This document shows, one piece after another, positions 7,970 to 48,170 of a stretch of 48,985 bases of DNA (within the stretch, counting starts at the first letter, position 1; every line of letters starts with the position of its first letter). The stretch is taken from positions 1 through 48,985 of the forward strand of contig CAMQSH010000002.1 in assembly GCA_947036575.1 (NCBI GenBank). The letters are read 5' to 3'. The notes below the pieces were generated by a model. The model was not told where the DNA came from. It was given only the letters and a program-made list of their open reading frames with translations, and made no database searches. Source of the stretch: an uncultured Brevinema sp. (GTDB taxonomy: Bacteria; Spirochaetota; Brevinematia; Brevinematales; Brevinemataceae). A program made the position numbers and the translations under genes.

Positions 7970-8019
7970 CTTATAAAATATACCCCATCATAAATTTATG
8001 GTGGGGTATATTTTATAAG
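7970..8019. terminator. Bidirectional terminator between convergent genes
   Basis: Near-perfect 50-bp palindrome CTTATAAAATATACCCCATCATAAATTTATGGTGGGGTATATTTTATAAG. Confidence 0.8.
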
Positions 8020-8041
8020 GCTCTAACAATAGAGTTTTATA

Positions 8042-8764
8042 CTATAGTTGATTTTTTAAACGATAGGTTTCTATCATAATATCATATTTTTGAGGATTTC
8101 TAATTGCTTCTGTGTATTCAAATAACGTTCCATCATTTAAAAAACTTTGAGTTTTGATACATACTGCAGGCATATTAGGGACAGTATTTAATAAGTCGGC
8201 TATTTCTTCATCAAGTATGATAGGACTAAAGTGAATATGACTATTTTTAATAATCATTTGTTTTTGTTTTTCTATATAATCATATTTAGATTTTGACATT
8301 ACTTCAAAGGATAAATCTGGAAATAAATATACAGGCATGTATCCAATTTCAAATACTATAGGCTCTTCATCTAATAGACGTAATCTTTTAGTATGATAAA
8401 CTGGAATTTTTTCTTCTATATGAAGTAGTTGTGCTACTTCTAGAGGTGCTGGAATAATTTCAAATATAGATACTTTAGTCGTTGGTATACCTCCAACTTG
8501 TTGAGCATATTCAAAAAAATTATCCAATTGAGTTATTTTAAAGTCTTTACGCTGAGCTTTAACAAAAGTACCACTTCCTTGTATAGAATAAACAATGTTT
8601 TCTTTAATTAATTGTTGAATACTATTACGTAAAGTAGTTCTACTAACTTTATAATATTCTATCAAGAAATGTTCTGTAGGAAGAACATCACCAGGTTTTA
8701 GTTTGTTTTGAATAAATTCCTGATAGATTGATTGAGCTATTTTGATGTAAGAAAATTGTTTCAT
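8042..8764 (-). CDS. GntR family transcriptional regulator with UTRA domain
   Basis: N-terminal wHTH (LKPGDVLPTEHFLIEYYKVSRTTLRNSIQQLIKENIVYSIQGSGTFV) and UTRA-like C-terminus. Confidence 0.92.
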   Translation of the reverse strand: MKQFSYIKIAQSIYQEFIQNKLKPGDVLPTEHFLIEYYKVSRTTLRNSIQQLIKENIVYSIQGSGTFVKAQRKDFKITQLDNFFEYAQQVGGIPTTKVSIFEIIPAPLEVAQLLHIEEKIPVYHTKRLRLLDEEPIVFEIGYMPVYLFPDLSFEVMSKSKYDYIEKQKQMIIKNSHIHFSPIILDEEIADLLNTVPNMPAVCIKTQSFLNDGTLFEYTEAIRNPQKYDIMIETYRLKNQL

Positions 8765-8856
8765 ATTTTCTCCTCTCTATTAATTATTATAACACAAAAT
8801 AAGGCATTTAGTCAAAATAAAGTATATATTAGATAAACTAGTATAGTTGTTATCAT

Positions 8857-8886
8857 AAAAGCCACCTCATTATAAGGTGGCTTTTT
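8857..8886 (-). terminator. Terminator-like hairpin between the M42 peptidase and gntR
   Basis: AAAAGCCACCTCATTATAAGGTGGCTTTTT. Confidence 0.75.
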
Positions 8887-8915
8887 GCTTTGAGTTATAT
8901 AAGATTTATTGAGTC

Positions 8916-9962
8916 TTATTTGGGAGGAATAGGGAGTATACTTTTGAATGTTTCTTCATTAATTGATTGAATAACAAGAGTTAATAAATCAATTTCGTTT
9001 TTAATATCATCCATATGAACAAGGCTTGTTGCTGTATGACAGTAGCGAACAGGGGTGATCAATGCCATTGCCGGGATTCCTATTCCGTAAAGAGCTACAG
9101 AACCTGTATCTGTCCCACCACCACCTAAGATATCATATTGATAGGGAATATTGTGCTTATCTGCTATTGTTGAGAATAATTCAATGAGAGAACGATTACC
9201 AAGTGCTGATTTATCTGCAACACAGAGACAAGGCCCTTTTTTCATGACACGTGTTTGCTGAGAAAATTGAGGAGTGTCTTTACAAGAGGCAACATCTAAG
9301 ATAATAGCAATATCAGGTTTTACAAGATTTGTAGCAGTTTTTGAACCTCTAGTGCCAACTTCTTCTTGAGCTGATCCTATAAAAACTAAATTACAGTCAA
9401 GTTGTTGTTCTGCTAAATTTTTGAAAACTTCCATTCCAATAAAACAAGAAACCCTATCATCTAAAGCTTTTGCTGCAATGATACCTTGATCTTCCCAATA
9501 TTCTGTTGTTGAACGAAGAGAGACACTATCTCCAATATGGATTTTATAAGCTAATACTTCTTCTTTATTAGAAAAACCAGCATCAACATATAAATTATCT
9601 ATACTAATATGTTGAGCAGGGTCTTTATCAGCATAGATACAACCTAAATATTGATCTTTGATAAGAACTCGAGATCCAATTACTTGATAAGGAGATATTC
9701 CACCAAGACTATGAAGACGAATAAATCCATTTTTATCAATATCTCGGACAATAAATCCTACTTCGTCAATATGAGCAACAAGAGCTACCGTTATTTTTTT
9801 TGGATTACCCTTTTTATGACAAATAATACTTCCAAGATTGTCAAATTGAATCTTTTGAGAAGAAGGGGTGAGATCATCTTTTATCAAAGATTGTACAATC
9901 CCCTCATCTCCAGGGATTGCACAGGCTTCTGTTAATTTTTTTAATAAATTATATTGTATCAT
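8916..9962 (-). CDS. M42 family metallopeptidase (FrvX/SgcX/CelM-like)
   Basis: VALVAHIDEVGFIV, ALDDRVSCF, GSAQEEVGTRGSKTA, GGGGTDTGSV, HTATSLVHMDD motifs of M42. Confidence 0.9.
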   Translation of the reverse strand: MIQYNLLKKLTEACAIPGDEGIVQSLIKDDLTPSSQKIQFDNLGSIICHKKGNPKKITVALVAHIDEVGFIVRDIDKNGFIRLHSLGGISPYQVIGSRVLIKDQYLGCIYADKDPAQHISIDNLYVDAGFSNKEEVLAYKIHIGDSVSLRSTTEYWEDQGIIAAKALDDRVSCFIGMEVFKNLAEQQLDCNLVFIGSAQEEVGTRGSKTATNLVKPDIAIILDVASCKDTPQFSQQTRVMKKGPCLCVADKSALGNRSLIELFSTIADKHNIPYQYDILGGGGTDTGSVALYGIGIPAMALITPVRYCHTATSLVHMDDIKNEIDLLTLVIQSINEETFKSILPIPPK

Positions 9963-33911: not shown

Positions 33912-34598
33912 CTACTTAGTGCTTGTATCTGTTCCATCCCAAGCATTAGTGAAAATGTTGAGTCCTTTGTCAGTAAAAGGATGTAACATAGATTCTTCAT
34001 AAACTGCTAGTCCACAAGTAACAGCATCTGCTCCACTACGGAAAGCATGAGCAATTTGTGCTCCACTACGTAATGCTGCTACTAAAACTTGTGTTTGTGA
34101 ACCACTATTTGCATAAGTTTCGACGATACCTTCAATATAGTCTCTTGTATCTTCTCCATTAGCTTCTTTCCATCCAACAAAAGGGGATACAAATAAAGAT
34201 CCAGCATGTGCTGCATAAAGAGATTGAGCAACAGAAAATACTAGTGTTAAATTAGTACGAATATCCATTTCTTCTAATTTGTGTGCTGCCTCAATTCCTG
34301 CATAAGTACAAGGGAGTTTGATGACAAATAATTTTGACATATCAGCAAGGGATTTTCCCATATCTATCATATCTTGAGCTTTATTAAAGTGAGGATTTAC
34401 TTCAACAGAAATAGGAAAATCTTCCCATGATTTAAATCCTTGTTTTTCTGCCCAAGTATAAATCTCCTTAATTACGGAATAAAAAGGCTTTCCACTTAAT
34501 TCGATATGTCTAGGATTTGTTGTAATCCCGTCTATTCTGAATAACTCATACGCTTTTTGGATTTCATCCATTTTAGCACTATCTAAGAAAAATTTCAT
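33912..34598 (-). CDS. Transaldolase / fructose-6-P aldolase family; predicted 6-deoxy-6-sulfofructose transaldolase
   Basis: MKFFLDSAKMDEI..DGITTNPRHIELSGK, Schiff-base lysine FVIKLPCT; start at 34598 since the RBS (ggaggg) lies inside the track N-terminus. Specific function inferred from neighbours. Confidence 0.85.
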   Translation of the reverse strand: MKFFLDSAKMDEIQKAYELFRIDGITTNPRHIELSGKPFYSVIKEIYTWAEKQGFKSWEDFPISVEVNPHFNKAQDMIDMGKSLADMSKLFVIKLPCTYAGIEAAHKLEEMDIRTNLTLVFSVAQSLYAAHAGSLFVSPFVGWKEANGEDTRDYIEGIVETYANSGSQTQVLVAALRSGAQIAHAFRSGADAVTCGLAVYEESMLHPFTDKGLNIFTNAWDGTDTSTK

Positions 34599-34662
34599 TT
34601 TTCCCTCCATATATTATATATTTTACCTATTTCTAATAGTTCATAAATTTTTTAATTTTTAT

Positions 34663-35727
34663 TTATACCAAAGGTGTCGTCACAGTAACGCCATTGTACG
34701 TTAAGGTAGGGTATCCCCCTGTTATGGTTAACATCTTTATTTCGCCTTGAGTAACGAGTACCGTTTCTTCTGATTTGGATCCAATTAAGGTTGGATTCCA
34801 TGCAATAAGTTGATTTTCTAGCAATGTTTCATTGAGATTAGGACGCAAGATCCACTCCCTTGATTCAAATCCAATAGCTCCACCTTGATGGTGATTCAAA
34901 TACTCCTGTTCAAAATTATGGTTTTTATATGAGTGAAGCATATTGTTCCACAAATCTTTACTATGAGTACCTAGTTTAGAGGCTGCTATCATATCAGCAT
35001 TGATCTTAGCAACAGCTTGATTTTGTAGTTTCTCTTGAGCTGTTTCTGCTCGGAAATATCGGATACGACTAGCTGCTATCATTACACCTTTATATAGAGA
35101 GCAAATAACTACCATTACTTTATCTTTAACAAACTTATTAGTTGCTAAGGGATGTCTATAATTATTAAGATTTTCATCTCCAGCAACTAATAACACAGGT
35201 AATGCTATTCCTTCTTTTTCAAAAAGATATCGTACCTCAGCTTGAATTTGGATTTCAGACATGCCTGATTTTAAATTTTTTAAGCAATTTTCTAGAAATT
35301 CAGCCGAACGTTTAGATAGAAGGGTAGCTATTTCAACTTGTGTTGGATTAAGCTGATAACGGAGTTTTTTTATACTTCCAAAATCTTCTATAGCACCAGC
35401 AAGATTAAAATCACTAACAACTTTTTTGTCTGTTATAAGTTTTTGTAGGTTAGGACCAGGACCCTCTACCCATGAAAAACTTTTTACAGGGAATTTTTCT
35501 TCAAATATTTCATAAGAAATACGTTTTTGTTCATTGTTACTACAATACGCAAAAGCATCATCTTTTGTGACCCAAATAAAGCCTAAGCCTATATCTGTAT
35601 AAAAATTCATAGAGCTTTCACCACCAGAAAACCACGCAAAAGAACTTCGACGTCCTAATAACATTCCATCTAAATCATTTTTAGCTAAATATTTTCTGAT
35701 TTTTTCACATGCAAATTCTACTAACAT
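34663..35727 (-). CDS. M24 (pita-bread fold) family protein lacking canonical metal ligands
   Basis: Prolidase-like layout with NHHQGGAIGFESREW and SEETVLVT, but the usual IDAG...SDITR is VICSLYKGVMIAASRIR and IEPG is WNPT. Confidence 0.8.
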   Translation of the reverse strand: MLVEFACEKIRKYLAKNDLDGMLLGRRSSFAWFSGGESSMNFYTDIGLGFIWVTKDDAFAYCSNNEQKRISYEIFEEKFPVKSFSWVEGPGPNLQKLITDKKVVSDFNLAGAIEDFGSIKKLRYQLNPTQVEIATLLSKRSAEFLENCLKNLKSGMSEIQIQAEVRYLFEKEGIALPVLLVAGDENLNNYRHPLATNKFVKDKVMVVICSLYKGVMIAASRIRYFRAETAQEKLQNQAVAKINADMIAASKLGTHSKDLWNNMLHSYKNHNFEQEYLNHHQGGAIGFESREWILRPNLNETLLENQLIAWNPTLIGSKSEETVLVTQGEIKMLTITGGYPTLTYNGVTVTTPLV

Positions 35728-35735
35728 AGGTACTC

Positions 35736-37727
35736 CTACAAATCTTTTAATGATTTGAATTTTTCTAAAAATAGGGAAGATTTTTTGATGAATACAGGTA
35801 TTTTACCCAAAGGTGCATCTACTGTTACTGTTTGACCGCCTGTGTATTCTTTCCCAGACCATAAATGAATCCATGTATCTTTAGGAAGATAAACATCCCA
35901 CTCTTTTATGTTTTCTTGCCACACAGGAGCTACCAAAATATCAGCACCTAATAAGTACTCATAATCTTGTGTATATGCTTGCTTATCTTGTGGATACTCA
36001 AAAAATAAAGGTCTCATCAAAGGATATCCTTTTTCAGCAGCTTCTTTAATATAAAAATCTTTATATTTGCTTAATGCTTTAAAAACACGAACCATTCTTC
36101 CTAAGAAAGTCATCTGATAAGAGCTTTCATAAAGTTGAATATTTTCTATAGGTCTATTGGTTTCATGAGATCTCATCATACTGGTAAAAGCACAGAATTC
36201 TGTCCAACGAAGGTTTAATTCTACCGTACGTACATTTCCAAATAATGAGGTATATCCACCCAAATCACTATGATGAAAGGCGAATCCACTCACTCCTGAA
36301 GAAAGGGCTGCTGGTATAACACTTGCTAGTCCATCATCTTTAGAAAAATCAACAGATTGATCTCCAGCCCATAAAATAGGGCAATATTTTTGAGTAAAGG
36401 ATCCTGCTGCTCTCATAAAAATACAGGCATCACCTCTTTTATTTCGTGAACGAAGTGCTATATCATTGACTTCAGCCCATAAGGTTGGCCATTCATTATG
36501 TAATTTCATAGCATCACCATTTGCAAGCACACAATCTGTTGGTAGATATTCACCAAAATCTGCCATCCAACCTTCAAGTCCTATATCCAACATTTCTTGT
36601 CCAAGAATTCTTTCTGCAAACCATTCTTGAACTTCTTTAATAGTAAAATCTGGAATACCACAGTAGAATTCACCAAAGTCTACTTCGTAAACTTCGCCAT
36701 CTTTATTTTTGGCTAGATAGCCTAGTTTTTTAGCTTCTGCAAATAAAGGACCATCTATAGCTAAATAACAATTAGAATATCCTAAAAATTTGATTCCTTG
36801 TTTCTGTAAGCCTGTAACTCTGTTTTTGAAGTCAGGATAACGTTTTGAATCATGTTGCCAATCCCACATAAGCCGTTGACCAAAACTAGTCATACGAATA
36901 CCTTCCCAGTCTTGTACCCATACAGAATTAACATCAACACCATGTTCTTGTAAATCTTTTATTTTACTATCTATCTTATCCCATCCACCTTGAATACCAA
37001 GCATAAATCCTTCGTTGAGCCATTTTGGTAAGGTTTCTTGTCTGCCAATAAAACTGGTAAATTGTTCTATTAATGAGTAGTAAGTATCTCCCGCCCAAAA
37101 TAAAATTCTCTTAGGAACTTCCCAAATATGAACTTCATTAAAATTAGGATCTCTAAAATCAAATTCCGCATAAGAAAAGGAATCTGCGAATAAGTAATAT
37201 TTTTGATTAGACATATAAGAAGCTTGAGGATAGTTTGTAGTCCAATAATCACCACCAGACATTCCTGTTGAATCTGATTGCCAGGTAATATAAGTATCTT
37301 TATTACGACCTACACCAGGCTCGGAGCTCCAAATAGGAAACAATTTTCCTCGAAGATTGAAATGACTCATCTGTTCTCCAAGACCATATAGATGTTCTTG
37401 TTTTGTTGCAGATATTCTTGCCCAAAAACGAGAATATTGACGAGGTGTTGAAAAATTCCAACTAATAGCCGTACCTTCTCTACCAAAACTCAAGAGTAAT
37501 TCATCATCTCCATAATAAAATCTAAAATCATCACCTTTTTGCTCTACATGGCGAAGGGGGGTTTTTTCATCAGTTCTATCTGTAATTTTAAAATTACCTC
37601 TATACATTTTAACTTCTTCTGTTCCTTCTCCAACAAAAAAAGTAGGATTTTCTGGGCTATGATCTAAAACTAATATACTTCCTATCCAGATTTTAAGATT
37701 GTTATTGTTTAATTCTGATTTTAACAT
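35736..37727 (-). CDS. GH31 sulfoquinovosidase (YihQ-like)
   Basis: WVQDWEGIRMTSFGQRLMWDW (compare YihQ QDWSGIRMTSFGKRVMWNW), GWMADFGEYLPTD, ILWAGDQSVDFSKDDGLASVIPAALSSGVSGFAFHHSDLGGYT. Confidence 0.9.
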   Translation of the reverse strand: MLKSELNNNNLKIWIGSILVLDHSPENPTFFVGEGTEEVKMYRGNFKITDRTDEKTPLRHVEQKGDDFRFYYGDDELLLSFGREGTAISWNFSTPRQYSRFWARISATKQEHLYGLGEQMSHFNLRGKLFPIWSSEPGVGRNKDTYITWQSDSTGMSGGDYWTTNYPQASYMSNQKYYLFADSFSYAEFDFRDPNFNEVHIWEVPKRILFWAGDTYYSLIEQFTSFIGRQETLPKWLNEGFMLGIQGGWDKIDSKIKDLQEHGVDVNSVWVQDWEGIRMTSFGQRLMWDWQHDSKRYPDFKNRVTGLQKQGIKFLGYSNCYLAIDGPLFAEAKKLGYLAKNKDGEVYEVDFGEFYCGIPDFTIKEVQEWFAERILGQEMLDIGLEGWMADFGEYLPTDCVLANGDAMKLHNEWPTLWAEVNDIALRSRNKRGDACIFMRAAGSFTQKYCPILWAGDQSVDFSKDDGLASVIPAALSSGVSGFAFHHSDLGGYTSLFGNVRTVELNLRWTEFCAFTSMMRSHETNRPIENIQLYESSYQMTFLGRMVRVFKALSKYKDFYIKEAAEKGYPLMRPLFFEYPQDKQAYTQDYEYLLGADILVAPVWQENIKEWDVYLPKDTWIHLWSGKEYTGGQTVTVDAPLGKIPVFIKKSSLFLEKFKSLKDL

Positions 37728-37742
37728 ATTTCACATCCTATA

Positions 37743-39068
37743 TTAACGGTCAGCAATAATAACGGACCATTTATTAATTTTGGCAAATAATTTAAATGTT
37801 TTTGTTTGATCTCCATAAACTAGAGAAATATGATGAGCTAAACCATTCATAATAAGAGTGTCAAATACTTTGTCTGCTCCATTCTCAAATTTAGCTTTTA
37901 AGAAAGTTCCTTTGAGTAATTTTTCCATAGGAAGGACTGTTCCTTTTTCCATAAAGATACGAGTTTCACCAAGAGAGGTGTCAATTCTAAAAGAACTAAA
38001 ATCACCAGTTTTATGAACAAATCCTGCAGTCACACCTCTTCCTCCAGCAAAGAAGGTATCTAATGACTTAGGGCTTTTACCATCGGATAAGGTGTAAGGA
38101 GCATCTCCACCATGCCATAATAATGCTGTATTATCATCGAAAATTTGTGAAAAATCGGCACAAAAAGGGTCTTCAGCCCCAGCAATTTTATTAAGATACA
38201 TTGTTAAGGCAATTTGTGTATCCCCTTCAGGAGCCATGATATATCCTTTAGTTTGAAGTAAGGACATTACCGCACATGGACTTACGCCATAAGCTGGTCC
38301 AAATTCTGGCCAATTACGAACAGTAACCACTTTAAGATTATTAGTATCCATAAATTTTTTAGCACTAGCTGCTAATTTTGAGATAAGATACATTTGATCT
38401 TCAGACATTTCTGAAATATCTTCAAATATTGTTGTAAACTCTTTTTTAAACTCAGCTATTTCTGAGTCAGAGACTTCTTGTCCGTAGAAACTTTCTAAAG
38501 TATAATGTTCTAACATAACTCCAGAAGATTGCAAAAATGGAAGCTCATCAATAGCAAGATCATAAAATCCTTGAGCTCTAGCACCAACCATACCTATTGT
38601 CAAGCCTTTCATAGCTCTACACATGCGAATGGCATCAATCCAATGGGGATCAACGGTATCACTAATACTGTAAGAGAAATTTTTAATGCCCATTTTAGCA
38701 AGATTAGCTCCATCAAGGTGAAGTCCTACCATAGAATTATAACGAATTTTACCACCATTATAAGGTGCTTCTGGTAATGTCCATAGGTAGAGAGGTCTTT
38801 TAACTTTTTGTTCAATAATAAGTGCCAAGTGTCCTAGATGAAATGTTCCACTGCATAGGATCAAAGCATCGAGATTTTGTTCTGCAAAGTAATCTCCAGC
38901 CTTATGAGCATCTTCTGGTTCTATAACAGCTTCTGGATAAATAACAAATTCTACATTTTTATTTTTTTTGAGAAGTTCTAGTTTCTGATTGTATTCAGCC
39001 CAAGCAGATTCCCAATCAAAAGTTTTTCTTAAAAAACATACAACTCCAATTTTTGTAAATCCTTTCAT
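37743..39068 (-). CDS. L-fucose/L-arabinose isomerase-like protein; predicted sulfoquinovose isomerase
   Basis: N-terminal AlaDH-free Rossmann-like FucI/AraA layout (LDALILCSGTFHLGHLALIIEQKVKRPLYLWTLPEAP; GPAYGVSPCAVMSLLQTKGYIMAPEGD). Substrate from operon context. Confidence 0.75.
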   Translation of the reverse strand: MKGFTKIGVVCFLRKTFDWESAWAEYNQKLELLKKNKNVEFVIYPEAVIEPEDAHKAGDYFAEQNLDALILCSGTFHLGHLALIIEQKVKRPLYLWTLPEAPYNGGKIRYNSMVGLHLDGANLAKMGIKNFSYSISDTVDPHWIDAIRMCRAMKGLTIGMVGARAQGFYDLAIDELPFLQSSGVMLEHYTLESFYGQEVSDSEIAEFKKEFTTIFEDISEMSEDQMYLISKLAASAKKFMDTNNLKVVTVRNWPEFGPAYGVSPCAVMSLLQTKGYIMAPEGDTQIALTMYLNKIAGAEDPFCADFSQIFDDNTALLWHGGDAPYTLSDGKSPKSLDTFFAGGRGVTAGFVHKTGDFSSFRIDTSLGETRIFMEKGTVLPMEKLLKGTFLKAKFENGADKVFDTLIMNGLAHHISLVYGDQTKTFKLFAKINKWSVIIADR

Positions 39069-39965: not shown

Positions 39966-40691
39966 TTAAATTAATTGATTCACAATTGTCATAATACCAC
40001 CCATGAGTAGTATTATATTTAAAATATAATCGAATACACGTTTTGATATTTTAGATGCCAATACATTACCATACCATACAGCTATAATTAAAAAAGGAAG
40101 ATTCCATAATATCAATGTATTGACTTCTGATGTAAATTGATTGGTCATTAAACTCTGAGTAATTGTTATACTATTTAGTACTAACCATAGCACAGAAAGA
40201 CTAGCTCTAAACTTATTTTTATCTGTTAGAACCATGCTAGCATAAATAACAATTAATGGTCCTCCAGAAACAAAAGCTCCTTGTAATATGCCTCCAATAA
40301 AAACTAAGATAAGTAAAACAATATTAGGAATTGTATTAAACTGAATCCCTTTTAAGCGAGCAAGTCCCATAAAACTTGCAAATAACATTACCACTCCTAA
40401 AGTAATTAACAATATACCTTGTGGAAGGTAAGTATAGAGATAAAATCCTAAGGGTAGTCCAATTCCTGAAAGAATCAAAATAATTTTTAAGATATCCCAA
40501 CGGATATATTTCCTTACGCATACTACTATAAATAAAGGTTGTAATGTACCCATGATAAGGAGTAGAGGCTTTGCAGCTTCTATACCAATTACAGGGATCA
40601 AAAAAGGCATTGCTAAAATCGTACATCCAAATCCTGTTAAAGCACTTAAAAAATGTGTTGCAAATACAACTGTAATAATTAAACCCAGCAT
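39966..40691 (-). CDS. TauE/SafE family sulfonate/sulfite exporter
   Basis: Polytopic; FLSALTGFGCTILAMPFLIPVIGIEAAKPLLLIMG and GGILQGAFVSGGPLIVIYAS; start adjusted to 40691. Confidence 0.85.
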   Translation of the reverse strand: MLGLIITVVFATHFLSALTGFGCTILAMPFLIPVIGIEAAKPLLLIMGTLQPLFIVVCVRKYIRWDILKIILILSGIGLPLGFYLYTYLPQGILLITLGVVMLFASFMGLARLKGIQFNTIPNIVLLILVFIGGILQGAFVSGGPLIVIYASMVLTDKNKFRASLSVLWLVLNSITITQSLMTNQFTSEVNTLILWNLPFLIIAVWYGNVLASKISKRVFDYILNIILLMGGIMTIVNQLI

Positions 40692-40693
40692 TA

Positions 40694-41977
40694 TTAAAAA
40701 CCTACCAAATGAGGAAGTAACAAGCATAAATCAGGGAAGAAGGTGATAATGAAAATTAATATTATCTCTAAAATGATAAATGGGATACACTCTTTAACAA
40801 CTTCTTGAAGGGGAACTTTGGAAATTTCTGAAGATAAAAATAACACTAAACCCATAGGAGGAGTTATCAACCCTATAGTAACATTAATACTCATTACAAT
40901 ACCAAAATGTAAAGGATCTATACCCATAGCCACTAAAGGTGGTGCTAAAATTGGAGCAAAAATCAAAATAGCAGGACCTGCATCTAAGAACATTCCTATA
41001 ATAAAAAGCATGATATTTACAAAGAAGAAAACAAGGTAAGGATTATCTCCAAAGGAAAACATTATTGAATTAACAACTTGTGAAATAGGAGATAAGGATA
41101 CCACAATAGCAAAACCAGCAGCAACAGCAACCATCAATAAGATAGCAGATGATCCAACAGCTACATCTCTAAAGAGTGGATAGATTTTTGTAATAGAAAT
41201 TGATTTGTAGATAAAGATAGAAACAATCAAAGCATACGCTACAGCTATTGCGGCAGCTTCAGTTGGGGTAAAAATACCACCATAGATACCACCTAAAATG
41301 ATAACAGGAGTGAGTAATGCTAAAAAGGAATGCTTTGCTTGGGCAATACGTTCTTTTACTGTAGCTTTTGGTTGTTGAAAATTAAAGCCTTTTTTAATAC
41401 ATAAAAAATAGTTAAGAACCATTAAACAAACAGAGAATAAAAGTCCTGGAATAATAGCACCTATAAACATAGCTCCTACAGATACGTTCATTGTGAAAGC
41501 GTAAATCAACATAATTCCACTAGGTGGGATAATTGGTCCTAAAACAGTTGCAGCAGCGGTTACGGCAGCAGCATAAGGACGAGAAAAGCCTTTTCTAGCC
41601 ATTTCTGGGATGAGCATGTTACCCACCGCAGATGTTGCAGCAACAGCAGAACCTGTTAGTGCTGAAAATAATGTTGCAGATAAAATAACCACATGTCCAA
41701 GAGATCCTTTGATATGCCCAACCATTACTTGAGAAAAATTAATAATTCTTTCTGTGATTTTTCCTTTCCCCATTACAGCACCAGCTAAAATAAAGAATGG
41801 TAATGCTAATAGTGTGAAATTCTCTAAAGAATTATTCATACGGGTAAATAAGGTTGCAATCATTTGAGAATTTCCAGACATTATAACTTCGACTAACGGT
41901 GCAACGGCAAGAGCAAAAAATACAGGAAGTCCTAATAACATTAAAACTAAAAATAATACAAAAAATAAAATTGTCAT
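40694..41977 (-). CDS. TRAP transporter large permease (DctM)
   Basis: LPFFILAGAVMGKGKITERIINFSQVMVGHIKGSLGHVVILSATLFSALTGSAVAATSAVG; PPSGIMLIYA. Confidence 0.95.
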   Translation of the reverse strand: MTILFFVLFLVLMLLGLPVFFALAVAPLVEVIMSGNSQMIATLFTRMNNSLENFTLLALPFFILAGAVMGKGKITERIINFSQVMVGHIKGSLGHVVILSATLFSALTGSAVAATSAVGNMLIPEMARKGFSRPYAAAVTAAATVLGPIIPPSGIMLIYAFTMNVSVGAMFIGAIIPGLLFSVCLMVLNYFLCIKKGFNFQQPKATVKERIAQAKHSFLALLTPVIILGGIYGGIFTPTEAAAIAVAYALIVSIFIYKSISITKIYPLFRDVAVGSSAILLMVAVAAGFAIVVSLSPISQVVNSIMFSFGDNPYLVFFFVNIMLFIIGMFLDAGPAILIFAPILAPPLVAMGIDPLHFGIVMSINVTIGLITPPMGLVLFLSSEISKVPLQEVVKECIPFIILEIILIFIITFFPDLCLLLPHLVGF

Positions 41978-42780: not shown

Positions 42781-43800
42781 ATGAAAAAAATTACGATTAA
42801 AGATGTTGCTCAATTAGCCAATGTTTCTACAACAACAGTATCTTTTGTTTTTAACAATCCAAAGAGAGTTAATAATGAAACAAGACAAAAAGTATTGGAA
42901 GCTGCTGGAAAATTGGGATATGCTCCTGATTTTAATGCTGTAGCATTACGAGGGAAATCAACAGCCATAGCTGTAATAATTAATTTTCATTATGACCAAA
43001 CTTTCCATAATCCAACAATTATAGAAGGGATACCTTTTATCGCTCAAAAATTAACACAGAAGGGATTCCATTTTATGCCTTTTTTTATGAAACCTGAAGA
43101 TCAAGAAAATCAACAACTTTTATCACTAATTGATAACAATAGGATTGCTGGAGTTTTGTTTTTAGCATCAAGAAATGACCTACATATTCTTAATGCTACT
43201 CTACAAAGAAAAATACCTCTTGTTGTTGTTGGTACTTTAGATCATTATGATAATCAAATATATAGTGTTGATAATAATAATGTTGAGGACACTTATAAAG
43301 CAACAATGCTAGCTTACGATAGAGGTTATAAATCTATAGCTTACCTTAGTGGAGACTTGGATTATATTGTCTGCCAACAGCGTCTAAATGGGTACAACAA
43401 AGCAGTTGCCGAAAAAAACATTCATACATCTATGGTCTATGGATTTTATGAAGATAGACAATCTATAGAGCAAACTATACAAAATATGATGATAAATTCT
43501 AATCCAGATGCGATTATTGTTAAAGATGATATTAAAGGAATTTATACTATTACTATGTTACAAAAATTAGGGTATATTGTAGGGAAAGATGTTGGGGTAA
43601 TAGGTATTGGAGGAATTACAGCAGGCACGTTTTGCAATCCTCAACTTAGTACCATGAAGATTTCCATGCAAGATATTTTTGAAAATGCTATTGATGTACT
43701 AATAGATCAGATCAGCACAAAATCTACTAAAGTAGGAAGAACTTTTATTACAACAGAATTTATAGATAGAGAAAGTTTACCTACTAAAATAATAGTATAA
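42781..43800 (+). CDS. LacI family transcriptional regulator
   Basis: MKKITIKDVAQLANVSTTTVSFVFNNPKRVNNETRQKVLEAAGKLGYAPDF. Confidence 0.95.
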   Translation: MKKITIKDVAQLANVSTTTVSFVFNNPKRVNNETRQKVLEAAGKLGYAPDFNAVALRGKSTAIAVIINFHYDQTFHNPTIIEGIPFIAQKLTQKGFHFMPFFMKPEDQENQQLLSLIDNNRIAGVLFLASRNDLHILNATLQRKIPLVVVGTLDHYDNQIYSVDNNNVEDTYKATMLAYDRGYKSIAYLSGDLDYIVCQQRLNGYNKAVAEKNIHTSMVYGFYEDRQSIEQTIQNMMINSNPDAIIVKDDIKGIYTITMLQKLGYIVGKDVGVIGIGGITAGTFCNPQLSTMKISMQDIFENAIDVLIDQISTKSTKVGRTFITTEFIDRESLPTKIIV

Positions 43801-47141: not shown

Positions 47142-48170
47142 TTAGCCATTATAATCAAAATCTGAGTTGGTGATACCATTTGTTCTATCTAAGATATCTA
47201 ATCCTTGTTGATTGAGCCAATAAGGAAGATCTATGATAACCCAATTTTCAACTAGTTTATCTCCTTCACGACGATAAACATCTACTACTTGCATTTCTAT
47301 GTTTTTAGCTCCACCTGGTAAGCCTAAAAAACCTCCTAATGGACTATTAGAAAGATTTGGCCATCCAAAAAAACAAGCATAATTACCTTCAGCAAAACGA
47401 CAAACATGTCCATTAAATACTTTATCACCTAAATTTTGACGGAAAGGTAATTGATGTCCTCTTTGATATCCTCTGATTGTATAACTTGCTCCAATTCCAG
47501 CAGGTCCATACCAAATCATATCTTTTGACCAAGATTTTTCTAAAATTTCTGGAGGACAAGACATAGAACCACTTTTGTTGAGCTCAGACAACTCATCTAC
47601 CATTTTATTCATCAAATTTAAAGTAATTTCAGCTTCTGTTGATGGAGCATCTTCAAATAACAATCCATCGTGAGTACGAGGACCTGGATAAATAAAATAT
47701 TGCCCTGTTTCTGGTGGTAAAGGATTTACTCCAGCCTGTTGCATAAAACCAATAAGATCAAAGAAAATCCCTGATTTGGTGATTTTTCCATTTTCAACAC
47801 AAGTAAATTCTGCATAACGAAGACTAATCATTTTTTTTGTTGGTTTGATACCTAGCCATTCTTCATTAAAGTTCCCCATAAAATGTCCCATACTCATAGT
47901 CCACTCTTCATGATTACCGTATAAATTATTACCACCAATAAAAATATCTTGGCGTCTTTGCATTCTATGTAAAGATTTTTTTAACGGTCTCCAGAATTTA
48001 TCAACAACAGTCTCTAAATTATTCTGTTCACGAAATGGATATGAAGCTCTCCAATCATAATCTTTTGCAATTAATGGCTTTAGATCTACTAGTAGTGATG
48101 CTTCTGTAGCATTTTCTACAGCCTTAAAATACTCCAAAACGAGCTGTTTTGTTGTTGTATATGTATTCAT
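47142..48170 (-). CDS. Double SnoaL/NTF2-like domain protein
   Basis: Two repeats with ester-cyclase/SnoaL patterns (HEEWTMSMGHFMGNFNEEWLGIKPTKKMISLRYAEFTCVENGKI; MIWYGPAGIGASYTIRGYQRGHQLPFRQNL..VVDVYRREGDKLVENWVIIDLP). Confidence 0.75.
   Translation of the reverse strand: MNTYTTTKQLVLEYFKAVENATEASLLVDLKPLIAKDYDWRASYPFREQNNLETVVDKFWRPLKKSLHRMQRRQDIFIGGNNLYGNHEEWTMSMGHFMGNFNEEWLGIKPTKKMISLRYAEFTCVENGKITKSGIFFDLIGFMQQAGVNPLPPETGQYFIYPGPRTHDGLLFEDAPSTEAEITLNLMNKMVDELSELNKSGSMSCPPEILEKSWSKDMIWYGPAGIGASYTIRGYQRGHQLPFRQNLGDKVFNGHVCRFAEGNYACFFGWPNLSNSPLGGFLGLPGGAKNIEMQVVDVYRREGDKLVENWVIIDLPYWLNQQGLDILDRTNGITNSDFDYNG

What the first reader, a model, noticed from the sequence alone, without database searches (positions are those of the whole stretch)
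34663..35727. M24 pita-bread protein without metal ligands embedded in the sulfoquinovose operon
An Xaa-Pro-peptidase-like protein sits between the sulfoquinovosidase and transaldolase genes. At least three of the five canonical M24 metal ligands appear replaced: Asp to Cys in VICSL, Asp to Ser in AASRIR, Glu to Asn in AWNPT. The His (HHQGG) and last Glu (SEET) remain. Like creatinase, this could be a metal-independent pita-bread enzyme with a small-molecule substrate. No step in the known sulfo-TAL route needs it, so it may mark an extra or novel reaction on SQ glycosides or another sulfonate.
Basis: partly seen in the sequence, partly recalled or inferred. Interest (0 to 1): 0.75.

Follow-up and report, generated by a model that had tools for sequence, protein, structure and literature searches.

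The report
Metal-free M24 protein in sulfosugar operon
A protein that looks like a metal-dependent peptide-cutting enzyme but has lost the residues that would hold the metal is a conserved part of gene clusters that break down the plant sulfosugar sulfoquinovose in several spirochaetes; its relatives sit in xylose, arabinose and rhamnose clusters of bacteria and archaea, so it probably belongs to an undescribed family of sugar-handling proteins misnamed as peptidases.

Summary
The ORF (34663-35727, minus strand, 354 aa) is real. One detail is wrong: the His of HHQGG aligns with the second-shell His of prolidases, and the metal-binding His has become Gly283. So four of five M24 ligands are lost; only E320 remains. 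The protein belongs to a well-supported ligand-free M24 branch, separate from prolidase and creatinase, found in Spirochaetota, Thermus, Deinococcus, Pantoea, cyanobacteria and haloarchaea. Its neighbours are mostly sugar genes; in Thermus it directly follows xylA-xylB. In Spirochaetota it sits in or near SQ loci of two different pathways: the transaldolase type (this window, two Brachyspira) and the transketolase type (three other genomes). These share only sugar release, isomerisation and transport, so its role is probably at the level of SQ itself. It is under purifying selection (dN/dS 0.12) but not essential to the pathway: most Spirochaetota SQ loci lack it. My best mechanism is a metal-free acid-base catalyst on the free sulfosugar, perhaps ring opening or anomer exchange. 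The reaction is inferred, and mutarotation has evidence against it. I found no prior report in the open-access papers searched.

The parts
34663..35727 (-). Ligand-free M24/pita-bread protein (354 aa), the subject
   Evidence: ORF; Pfam M24; ligand analysis; conservation; RBS GGAG upstream
35152..35154 (-). codon of H192 (RHP motif; aligns with the His of LPHG in prolidase and the catalytic His of creatinase), invariant 35/35
34879..34881 (-). codon of G283, replacing the metal-ligand His, 35/35 Gly in the family
34795..34797 (-). codon of N311, replacing the first metal-ligand Glu, Asn in 34/35
34768..34770 (-). codon of E320, the only retained metal-ligand residue, 35/35
33912..34610 (-). 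transaldolase/FSA-family gene, putative 6-deoxy-6-sulfofructose transaldolase; the true start may be the ATG 12 bp downstream
   Evidence: PF00923; start seen
35736..37727 (-). GH31 sulfoquinovosidase (YihQ type)
   Evidence: NF007746, 891.8 bits (cut-off 553)
37743..39068 (-). putative SQ isomerase (SftI-like, 149 bits, far below the equivalog cut-off of 700)
   Evidence: NF048012
39080..39946 (-). putative sulfolactaldehyde reductase (HIBADH family; below the equivalog cut-off)
39966..40727 (-). TauE/SafE-type exporter, presumably for the C3 sulfonate
   Evidence: PF01925
40694..41977 (-). TRAP transporter large subunit DctM
   Evidence: PF06808
41990..42625 (-). TRAP transporter small subunit DctQ (TTG start as called)
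   Evidence: PF04290
32783..33886 (-). TRAP solute-binding protein DctP
   Evidence: PF03480
42781..43800 (+). divergent LacI-type regulator, conserved beside the Brachyspira operon (45.5% identity)
   Evidence: (L059)

Best explanation
The gene encodes a metal-free pita-bread protein from an undescribed, ligand-free branch of the M24 superfamily that travels with sugar-catabolic operons. In this operon it most likely acts on sulfoquinovose itself, between glycoside cleavage and isomerisation. The proposed mechanism is acid-base catalysis with H192, H279 and E320, with R191, R221 and R290 holding the anionic sugar; opening of the sugar ring or interconversion of anomers before the isomerase is the most likely reaction. 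Shown: metal ligands lost, operon membership, purifying selection, linkage to SQ genes in two pathway types, family-wide link to sugar genes. Inferred: that it is catalytic, that SQ is the substrate, and the reaction.
For: Operon conserved gene for gene in two Brachyspira, M24 56% identical. Same family in transketolase-type SQ loci of three other genomes: transketolase N and C halves, RpiB-type isomerase and SauS-like dehydrogenase with an SftI-like isomerase; G380 also has TauE and YihQ in the cluster. The two pathways share only upstream sugar steps and transport. Ligand-free branch separated from prolidases and creatinase with 100/99 support. Relatives directly follow xylA-xylB in Thermus plasmids, lie near an L-fucose isomerase in Deinococcus and among arabinofuranosidase/sugar-ABC genes in haloarchaea. 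Nearly invariant RHP, HHQGG, R290, N311, E320. Purifying selection, dN/dS 0.124. The six SQ-linked copies share S29 (0 of 29 others) and N41 (3% of others) in the N-terminal domain. No aldose-1-epimerase gene lies in any SQ isomerase locus searched.
Against: No activity is known. The ring-opening/mutarotase reading has real problems: every M24-bearing SQ genome tested (G000, G097, G141, G380) has a GalM-type epimerase elsewhere; the other SQ isomerase loci that could be read lack M24, including two with a transaldolase gene (L063, L066); and in three loci (L024, L025, L114) a relative lies near a RhaM-like mutarotase gene, so a universal mutarotase role is unlikely. Some relatives lie among Tct transporter and Gfo/Idh genes, or beside methyltransferase-like genes (L026), where the substrate is unknown. 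No usable structure model: pLDDT 34.6 from three sequences.
Confidence: 0.38

Rival explanations
1. A metal-free hydrolase of an SQ conjugate, in the manner of creatinase: it cleaves an SQ derivative (for example an amine-, amide- or ester-linked one) so that more forms of SQ can be used.
For: Creatinase is an M24 pita-bread hydrolase with altered ligand positions (its 1CHM sequence aligned), and the DoeA ectoine hydrolases turn up in the same fold family. The gene sits directly after the SQase gene (8 bp gap).
Against: Creatinase branches with canonical prolidases, not with this family. No amidase, aminotransferase or nitrogen-handling gene lies in the operon. Relatives in xylA-xylB operons have no obvious conjugate to cleave.
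Confidence: 0.2
2. A non-catalytic sugar-binding pseudoenzyme that scaffolds or regulates the pathway enzymes or transporter, like other ligand-free M24 proteins (Ebp1/PA2G4, Spt16).
For: Four of five catalytic metal ligands lost; a ligand-free M24 pseudoenzyme, the PA2G4 homologue, is described in PMC3888471; dispensable in most SQ loci.
Against: A polar cluster (R191, H192, R221, H279, Q281, R290, N311, E320) is nearly invariant across bacteria and archaea, more like an active site than a docking surface.
Confidence: 0.2
3. It processes a different sugar or sugar derivative brought in by the same transporter (for example opening an aldonolactone) and is in the operon as an accessory, not as a step of SQ breakdown.
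For: Many relatives lie beside Gfo/Idh, SDR or GMC oxidoreductase genes, where sugar lactones could form; M24 is absent from many SQ operons.
Against: The operon here has no sugar dehydrogenase, and the link to SQ genes appears in two pathway types and several lineages.
Confidence: 0.15
4. An ordinary Xaa-Pro peptidase that happens to lie in the operon.
For: Database annotation of the family as M24 family metallopeptidase; best PDB hit is a prolidase.
Against: Four of five metal ligands absent; the genome has a separate M24 prolidase with all five ligands (G000:C269, L001).
Confidence: 0.03

Closest known systems
Xaa-Pro dipeptidase/aminopeptidase P (M24B), e.g. P. furiosus prolidase 1pv9
   Same: Full-length homology over residues 7-335 (hhalign prob 99, E 1e-19), pita-bread fold by homology, retained H192 and H279 second-shell histidines and E320
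   Different: Four of five metal ligands lost; the second-shell His after the hairpin is R290; five residues deleted around the fourth ligand
Creatinase (1CHM)
   Same: M24 fold, altered metal-ligand positions, conserved catalytic His aligned with H192
   Different: Branches with prolidases, not with this family; its active-site hairpin sequence differs; no creatinase family model matched the window protein
Ligand-free M24 proteins Ebp1/PA2G4 and Spt16 (eukaryotic pseudoenzymes; general knowledge and PMC3888471)
   Same: M24 fold without metal site
   Different: Eukaryotic and macromolecule-binding; here an operon protein with a nearly invariant polar residue set
Sulfo-TAL and sulfo-TK sulfoglycolysis operons (reviewed in PMC12890257)
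   Same: SQase, SQ isomerase, transaldolase or transketolase, sulfonate exporter present
   Different: The described pathways have no M24 protein; a mutarotase SqvB is given for sulfo-TAL (PMC12890257) and SftX/DUF4867 appears in some gene clusters (PMC13219744)

Membership tests
M24 metallopeptidase (prolidase/APP) | five metal ligands Asp, Asp, His, Glu, Glu | tested here: not met
   only the last Glu (E320) is kept
M24 metallopeptidase (prolidase/APP) | sequence homology to the M24 domain | tested here: met
   PF00557 42.1 bits, cut-off 23; hhalign prob 99 to prolidases
Creatinase | clusters with creatinase rather than with other M24 proteins | tested here: not met
   creatinase falls with prolidases, ligand-free family apart, 100/99 (creatinase is a long branch)
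Creatinase | creatine hydrolysis | not testable with these tools
   needs assay
Sulfo-TAL operon | SQase of YihQ type | tested here: met
   NF007746 891.8 bits, above cut-off 553
Sulfo-TAL operon | SQ isomerase, SF transaldolase, SLA reductase | tested here: inconclusive
   right families and order, but all below the NCBIfam equivalog cut-offs; substrates not tested
Sulfo-TAL operon | sulfonate exporter | tested here: met
   PF01925 TauE; substrate not tested
Aldose 1-epimerase / SQ mutarotase (YihR, SqvB) | homology to PF01263 | tested here: not met
   M24 protein matches only M24; no PF01263 gene near SQ isomerase loci
Aldose 1-epimerase / SQ mutarotase (YihR, SqvB) | catalyses anomer exchange | not testable with these tools
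   needs assay
Ligand-free M24 sugar-operon branch (defined here) | motifs RHPxxT, TR, HHQGGxxGYxxRE, WNPSxxGxKxE and loss of four ligands | tested here: met
   branch support 100/99

The most novel reading that the evidence does not exclude
A new, domain-crossing family of metal-free pita-bread sugar enzymes, annotated everywhere as M24 peptidases, supplies an unrecognised aldose-level step (ring opening or anomer exchange) in sulfoquinovose, xylose, arabinose and rhamnose catabolism; a copy specialised for sulfoquinovose serves two different sulfoglycolytic pathways in spirochaetes.
Probability: 0.25. Interest if true: 0.8.

Novelty: new variant of a known kind. Interest (0 to 1): 0.6.

Why it matters
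[quoted passage not shown] A conserved extra protein in its operons implies a step or control that current pathway charts omit. Because relatives sit directly after xylA-xylB in Thermus, which can be grown in the laboratory, the function of a whole family misannotated as metallopeptidases in bacteria and archaea becomes testable.

Tried and rejected
Structure prediction from the three sequences allowed failed (pLDDT 34.6, pTM 0.23), so no fold search was run on it. Scans of viral contigs for more rows got no answer. My first hand alignment made R290 equal to creatinase R335 by equal spacing; ligand spacing showed that H324 of creatinase corresponds to the ligand His, so I dropped it (residue roles in creatinase are from general knowledge). 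Mutarotase replacement by anti-correlation with PF01263 gave no support. A four-row SQ clade was rejected (p-AU 0.009), but that was before two sister rows (L100, L101) proved to lie near SQ genes themselves; the six-row set is not rejected (p 0.34), which does not show a clade. The long-branch rows CREA_1chm, L087 and L104 were left out of that second tree. Literature searches for sulfoquinovose with creatinase, M24, aminopeptidase and Brachyspira found nothing relevant.

Full report
What is there. The ORF at 34663-35727 on the minus strand codes for 354 residues, with GGAG just upstream of its ATG. It is the seventh of nine same-strand genes, in the order DctQ, DctM, TauE, HIBADH-type reductase, SftI-like isomerase, YihQ-type GH31, M24, transaldolase/FSA, DctP. 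Gaps between genes run from -34 to 52 bp. A LacI-type regulator is divergent at 42781-43800. Only the GH31 gene passes its curated equivalog cut-off; isomerase, transaldolase and reductase are divergent members of the right families. The pathway assignment (SQ to a C3 sulfonate by the transaldolase route) is therefore inferred from gene content.

The metal site. The ORF was compared with P. furiosus prolidase (phmmer), with prolidases and creatinase (MAFFT) and profile to profile (hhalign). The correspondences are: first Asp to V207 (or C209; the loop is two residues shorter), second Asp to A218, ligand His to G283, first Glu to N311, second Glu to E320. The stretch VMVVICSLYKGVMIAASRIRYF has no acidic residue or His. 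So the loss is four of five. H192 and H279 stay, and the second-shell His after the hairpin is R290.

The family. A profile search of 395 Spirochaetota genomes and tblastn of plasmids found relatives at about 25-36% identity in Thermus, Deinococcus, Pantoea, Gloeothece, Nostoc and haloarchaea, mostly annotated as M24 family metallopeptidase. All 35 aligned copies have Gly at the ligand-His position and keep E320 and H192; the N311 position is Asn in 34 and the R290 position is Arg in 34. In the tree they form one side of a 100/99 branch, with prolidases and creatinase on the other (creatinase, L087 and L104 are long branches). The window's own genome has a separate M24 prolidase with all five ligands.

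Link to sulfoquinovose. Of 395 Spirochaetota genomes, 22 besides the window's have a close SQ isomerase relative (about 42-52% identity). Around the loci that could be read, some of them on short contigs, M24 was found only in Brachyspira. L063 and L066 have isomerase and transaldolase genes without M24, so it is not essential. Brachyspira pilosicoli T010 and another Brachyspira carry the operon in the same order, the second split over two contigs.

A second pathway type. Independently, G380 carries a ligand-free M24 (29% identical to the window's) between an SftI-like isomerase (158 bits) and TauE plus YihQ GH31 (880 bits). Beside them lie transketolase halves, an RpiB-type isomerase and a SauS-like acylating sulfoacetaldehyde dehydrogenase: the gene set of the sulfo-TK route. 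G295 and G337 have the same isomerase-transketolase-RpiB-dehydrogenase block (about 69-79% identical) with M24 (58-60%) about 6.5 kb away. G131 has the isomerase (63%) but no ligand-free M24 at the threshold used. Seven genomes hold both M24 and an SQ isomerase; in six they lie within about 10 kb (the exception is G374). By chance one expects roughly 0.007 per genome (20 kb in 3 Mb; my arithmetic), and even with only two or three independent events this is far from chance.

What that implies. The transaldolase and transketolase routes share uptake, glycoside cleavage, isomerisation and a TauE-type exporter; their later steps differ. A protein tied to both most simply acts on SQ or its glycosides. 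The six SQ-linked copies share S29 (Asn or Asp in nearly all others) and N41, both in the N-terminal domain; this is suggestive only, with six sequences from two lineages. A single SQ-specific clade of these six is not rejected (p-AU 0.34) but not shown.

Wider context. Ligand-free relatives directly follow xylA-xylB and precede a Gfo/Idh gene in T. brockianus and T. thermophilus plasmids. In haloarchaea they lie among arabinofuranosidase and sugar ABC genes, once near the pentose regulator xacR. One is near an L-fucose isomerase in Deinococcus, one overlaps a malQ gene in Nostoc, and two lie with RhaM-like and GH4 genes in Spirochaetota, one of these also with GH106. About ten others lie with Tct-type transporters, many also with Gfo/Idh genes. 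A few have no evident sugar context (L026 beside methyltransferase-like genes).

Mechanism. A set of H192, H279, E320 and R191, R221, R290, N311 without metal fits acid-base chemistry on an anionic sugar, though without a structure I cannot show that they form one pocket. Because the isomerase-type pathways (SQ, xylose) need no other enzyme, I favour ring opening or anomer exchange ahead of the isomerase. This is the least secure step. GalM-type epimerase genes are never in these loci, but all four M24-bearing SQ genomes tested have one elsewhere, and RhaM-like genes lie near three M24 relatives. A conjugate hydrolase or a binding pseudoenzyme remain open.

Selection. Between the two Brachyspira, M24 has dN/dS 0.124, compared with 0.043-0.096 for the other operon genes tested: constrained, a little less than its neighbours.

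Limits. No usable structure model. Firmicutes and other phyla could not be scanned. The window's genome is a 69% complete assembly. Neighbours in unannotated genomes were identified by BLAST, by eye and by a limited number of family scans.

Noticed in passing
L136 (T. thermophilus HB8 pVV8), 7995-8996; also L110, L137: A ligand-free M24 gene directly follows xylA-xylB and precedes a Gfo/Idh and (in HB8) an SDR gene, flanked by ISTth4 in HB8; a tractable model for the family.
   Followed up: partly
L127, L129, L130, L135: A divergent SQ isomerase clade (about 20% identical to the window's, 63-73% to the G380 copy) in four Spirochaetota, three of them shown here to be transketolase-type SQ loci.
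   Followed up: partly
L125:3604-4998 (G295): A GH4-type NAD-dependent glycosidase gene lies between the M24 gene and the transketolase-type SQ block; no YihQ homologue was seen in that stretch.
   Followed up: no
L026:638-5481 (G080): A deviant M24 relative follows an MttB-like methyltransferase pair and a corrinoid-protein-like gene (named by eye from sequence), beside dipeptide-type ABC genes; perhaps a different substrate class.
   Followed up: no
window 33912-34610: The transaldolase ORF start is probably the ATG 12 bp downstream of the longest start, as GGAGG lies inside the longer reading.
   Followed up: no
window 47142-48170: A 342-aa protein that looks by eye like two SnoaL-like halves, next to an MFS transporter gene; not examined.
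   Followed up: no
L060, L062, L067-L071 and others: About 20 other Spirochaetota carry a close SQ isomerase, most with a GH31 gene nearby but without homologues of the TRAP or reductase genes; different SQ operon types appear to exist in the phylum.
   Followed up: partly
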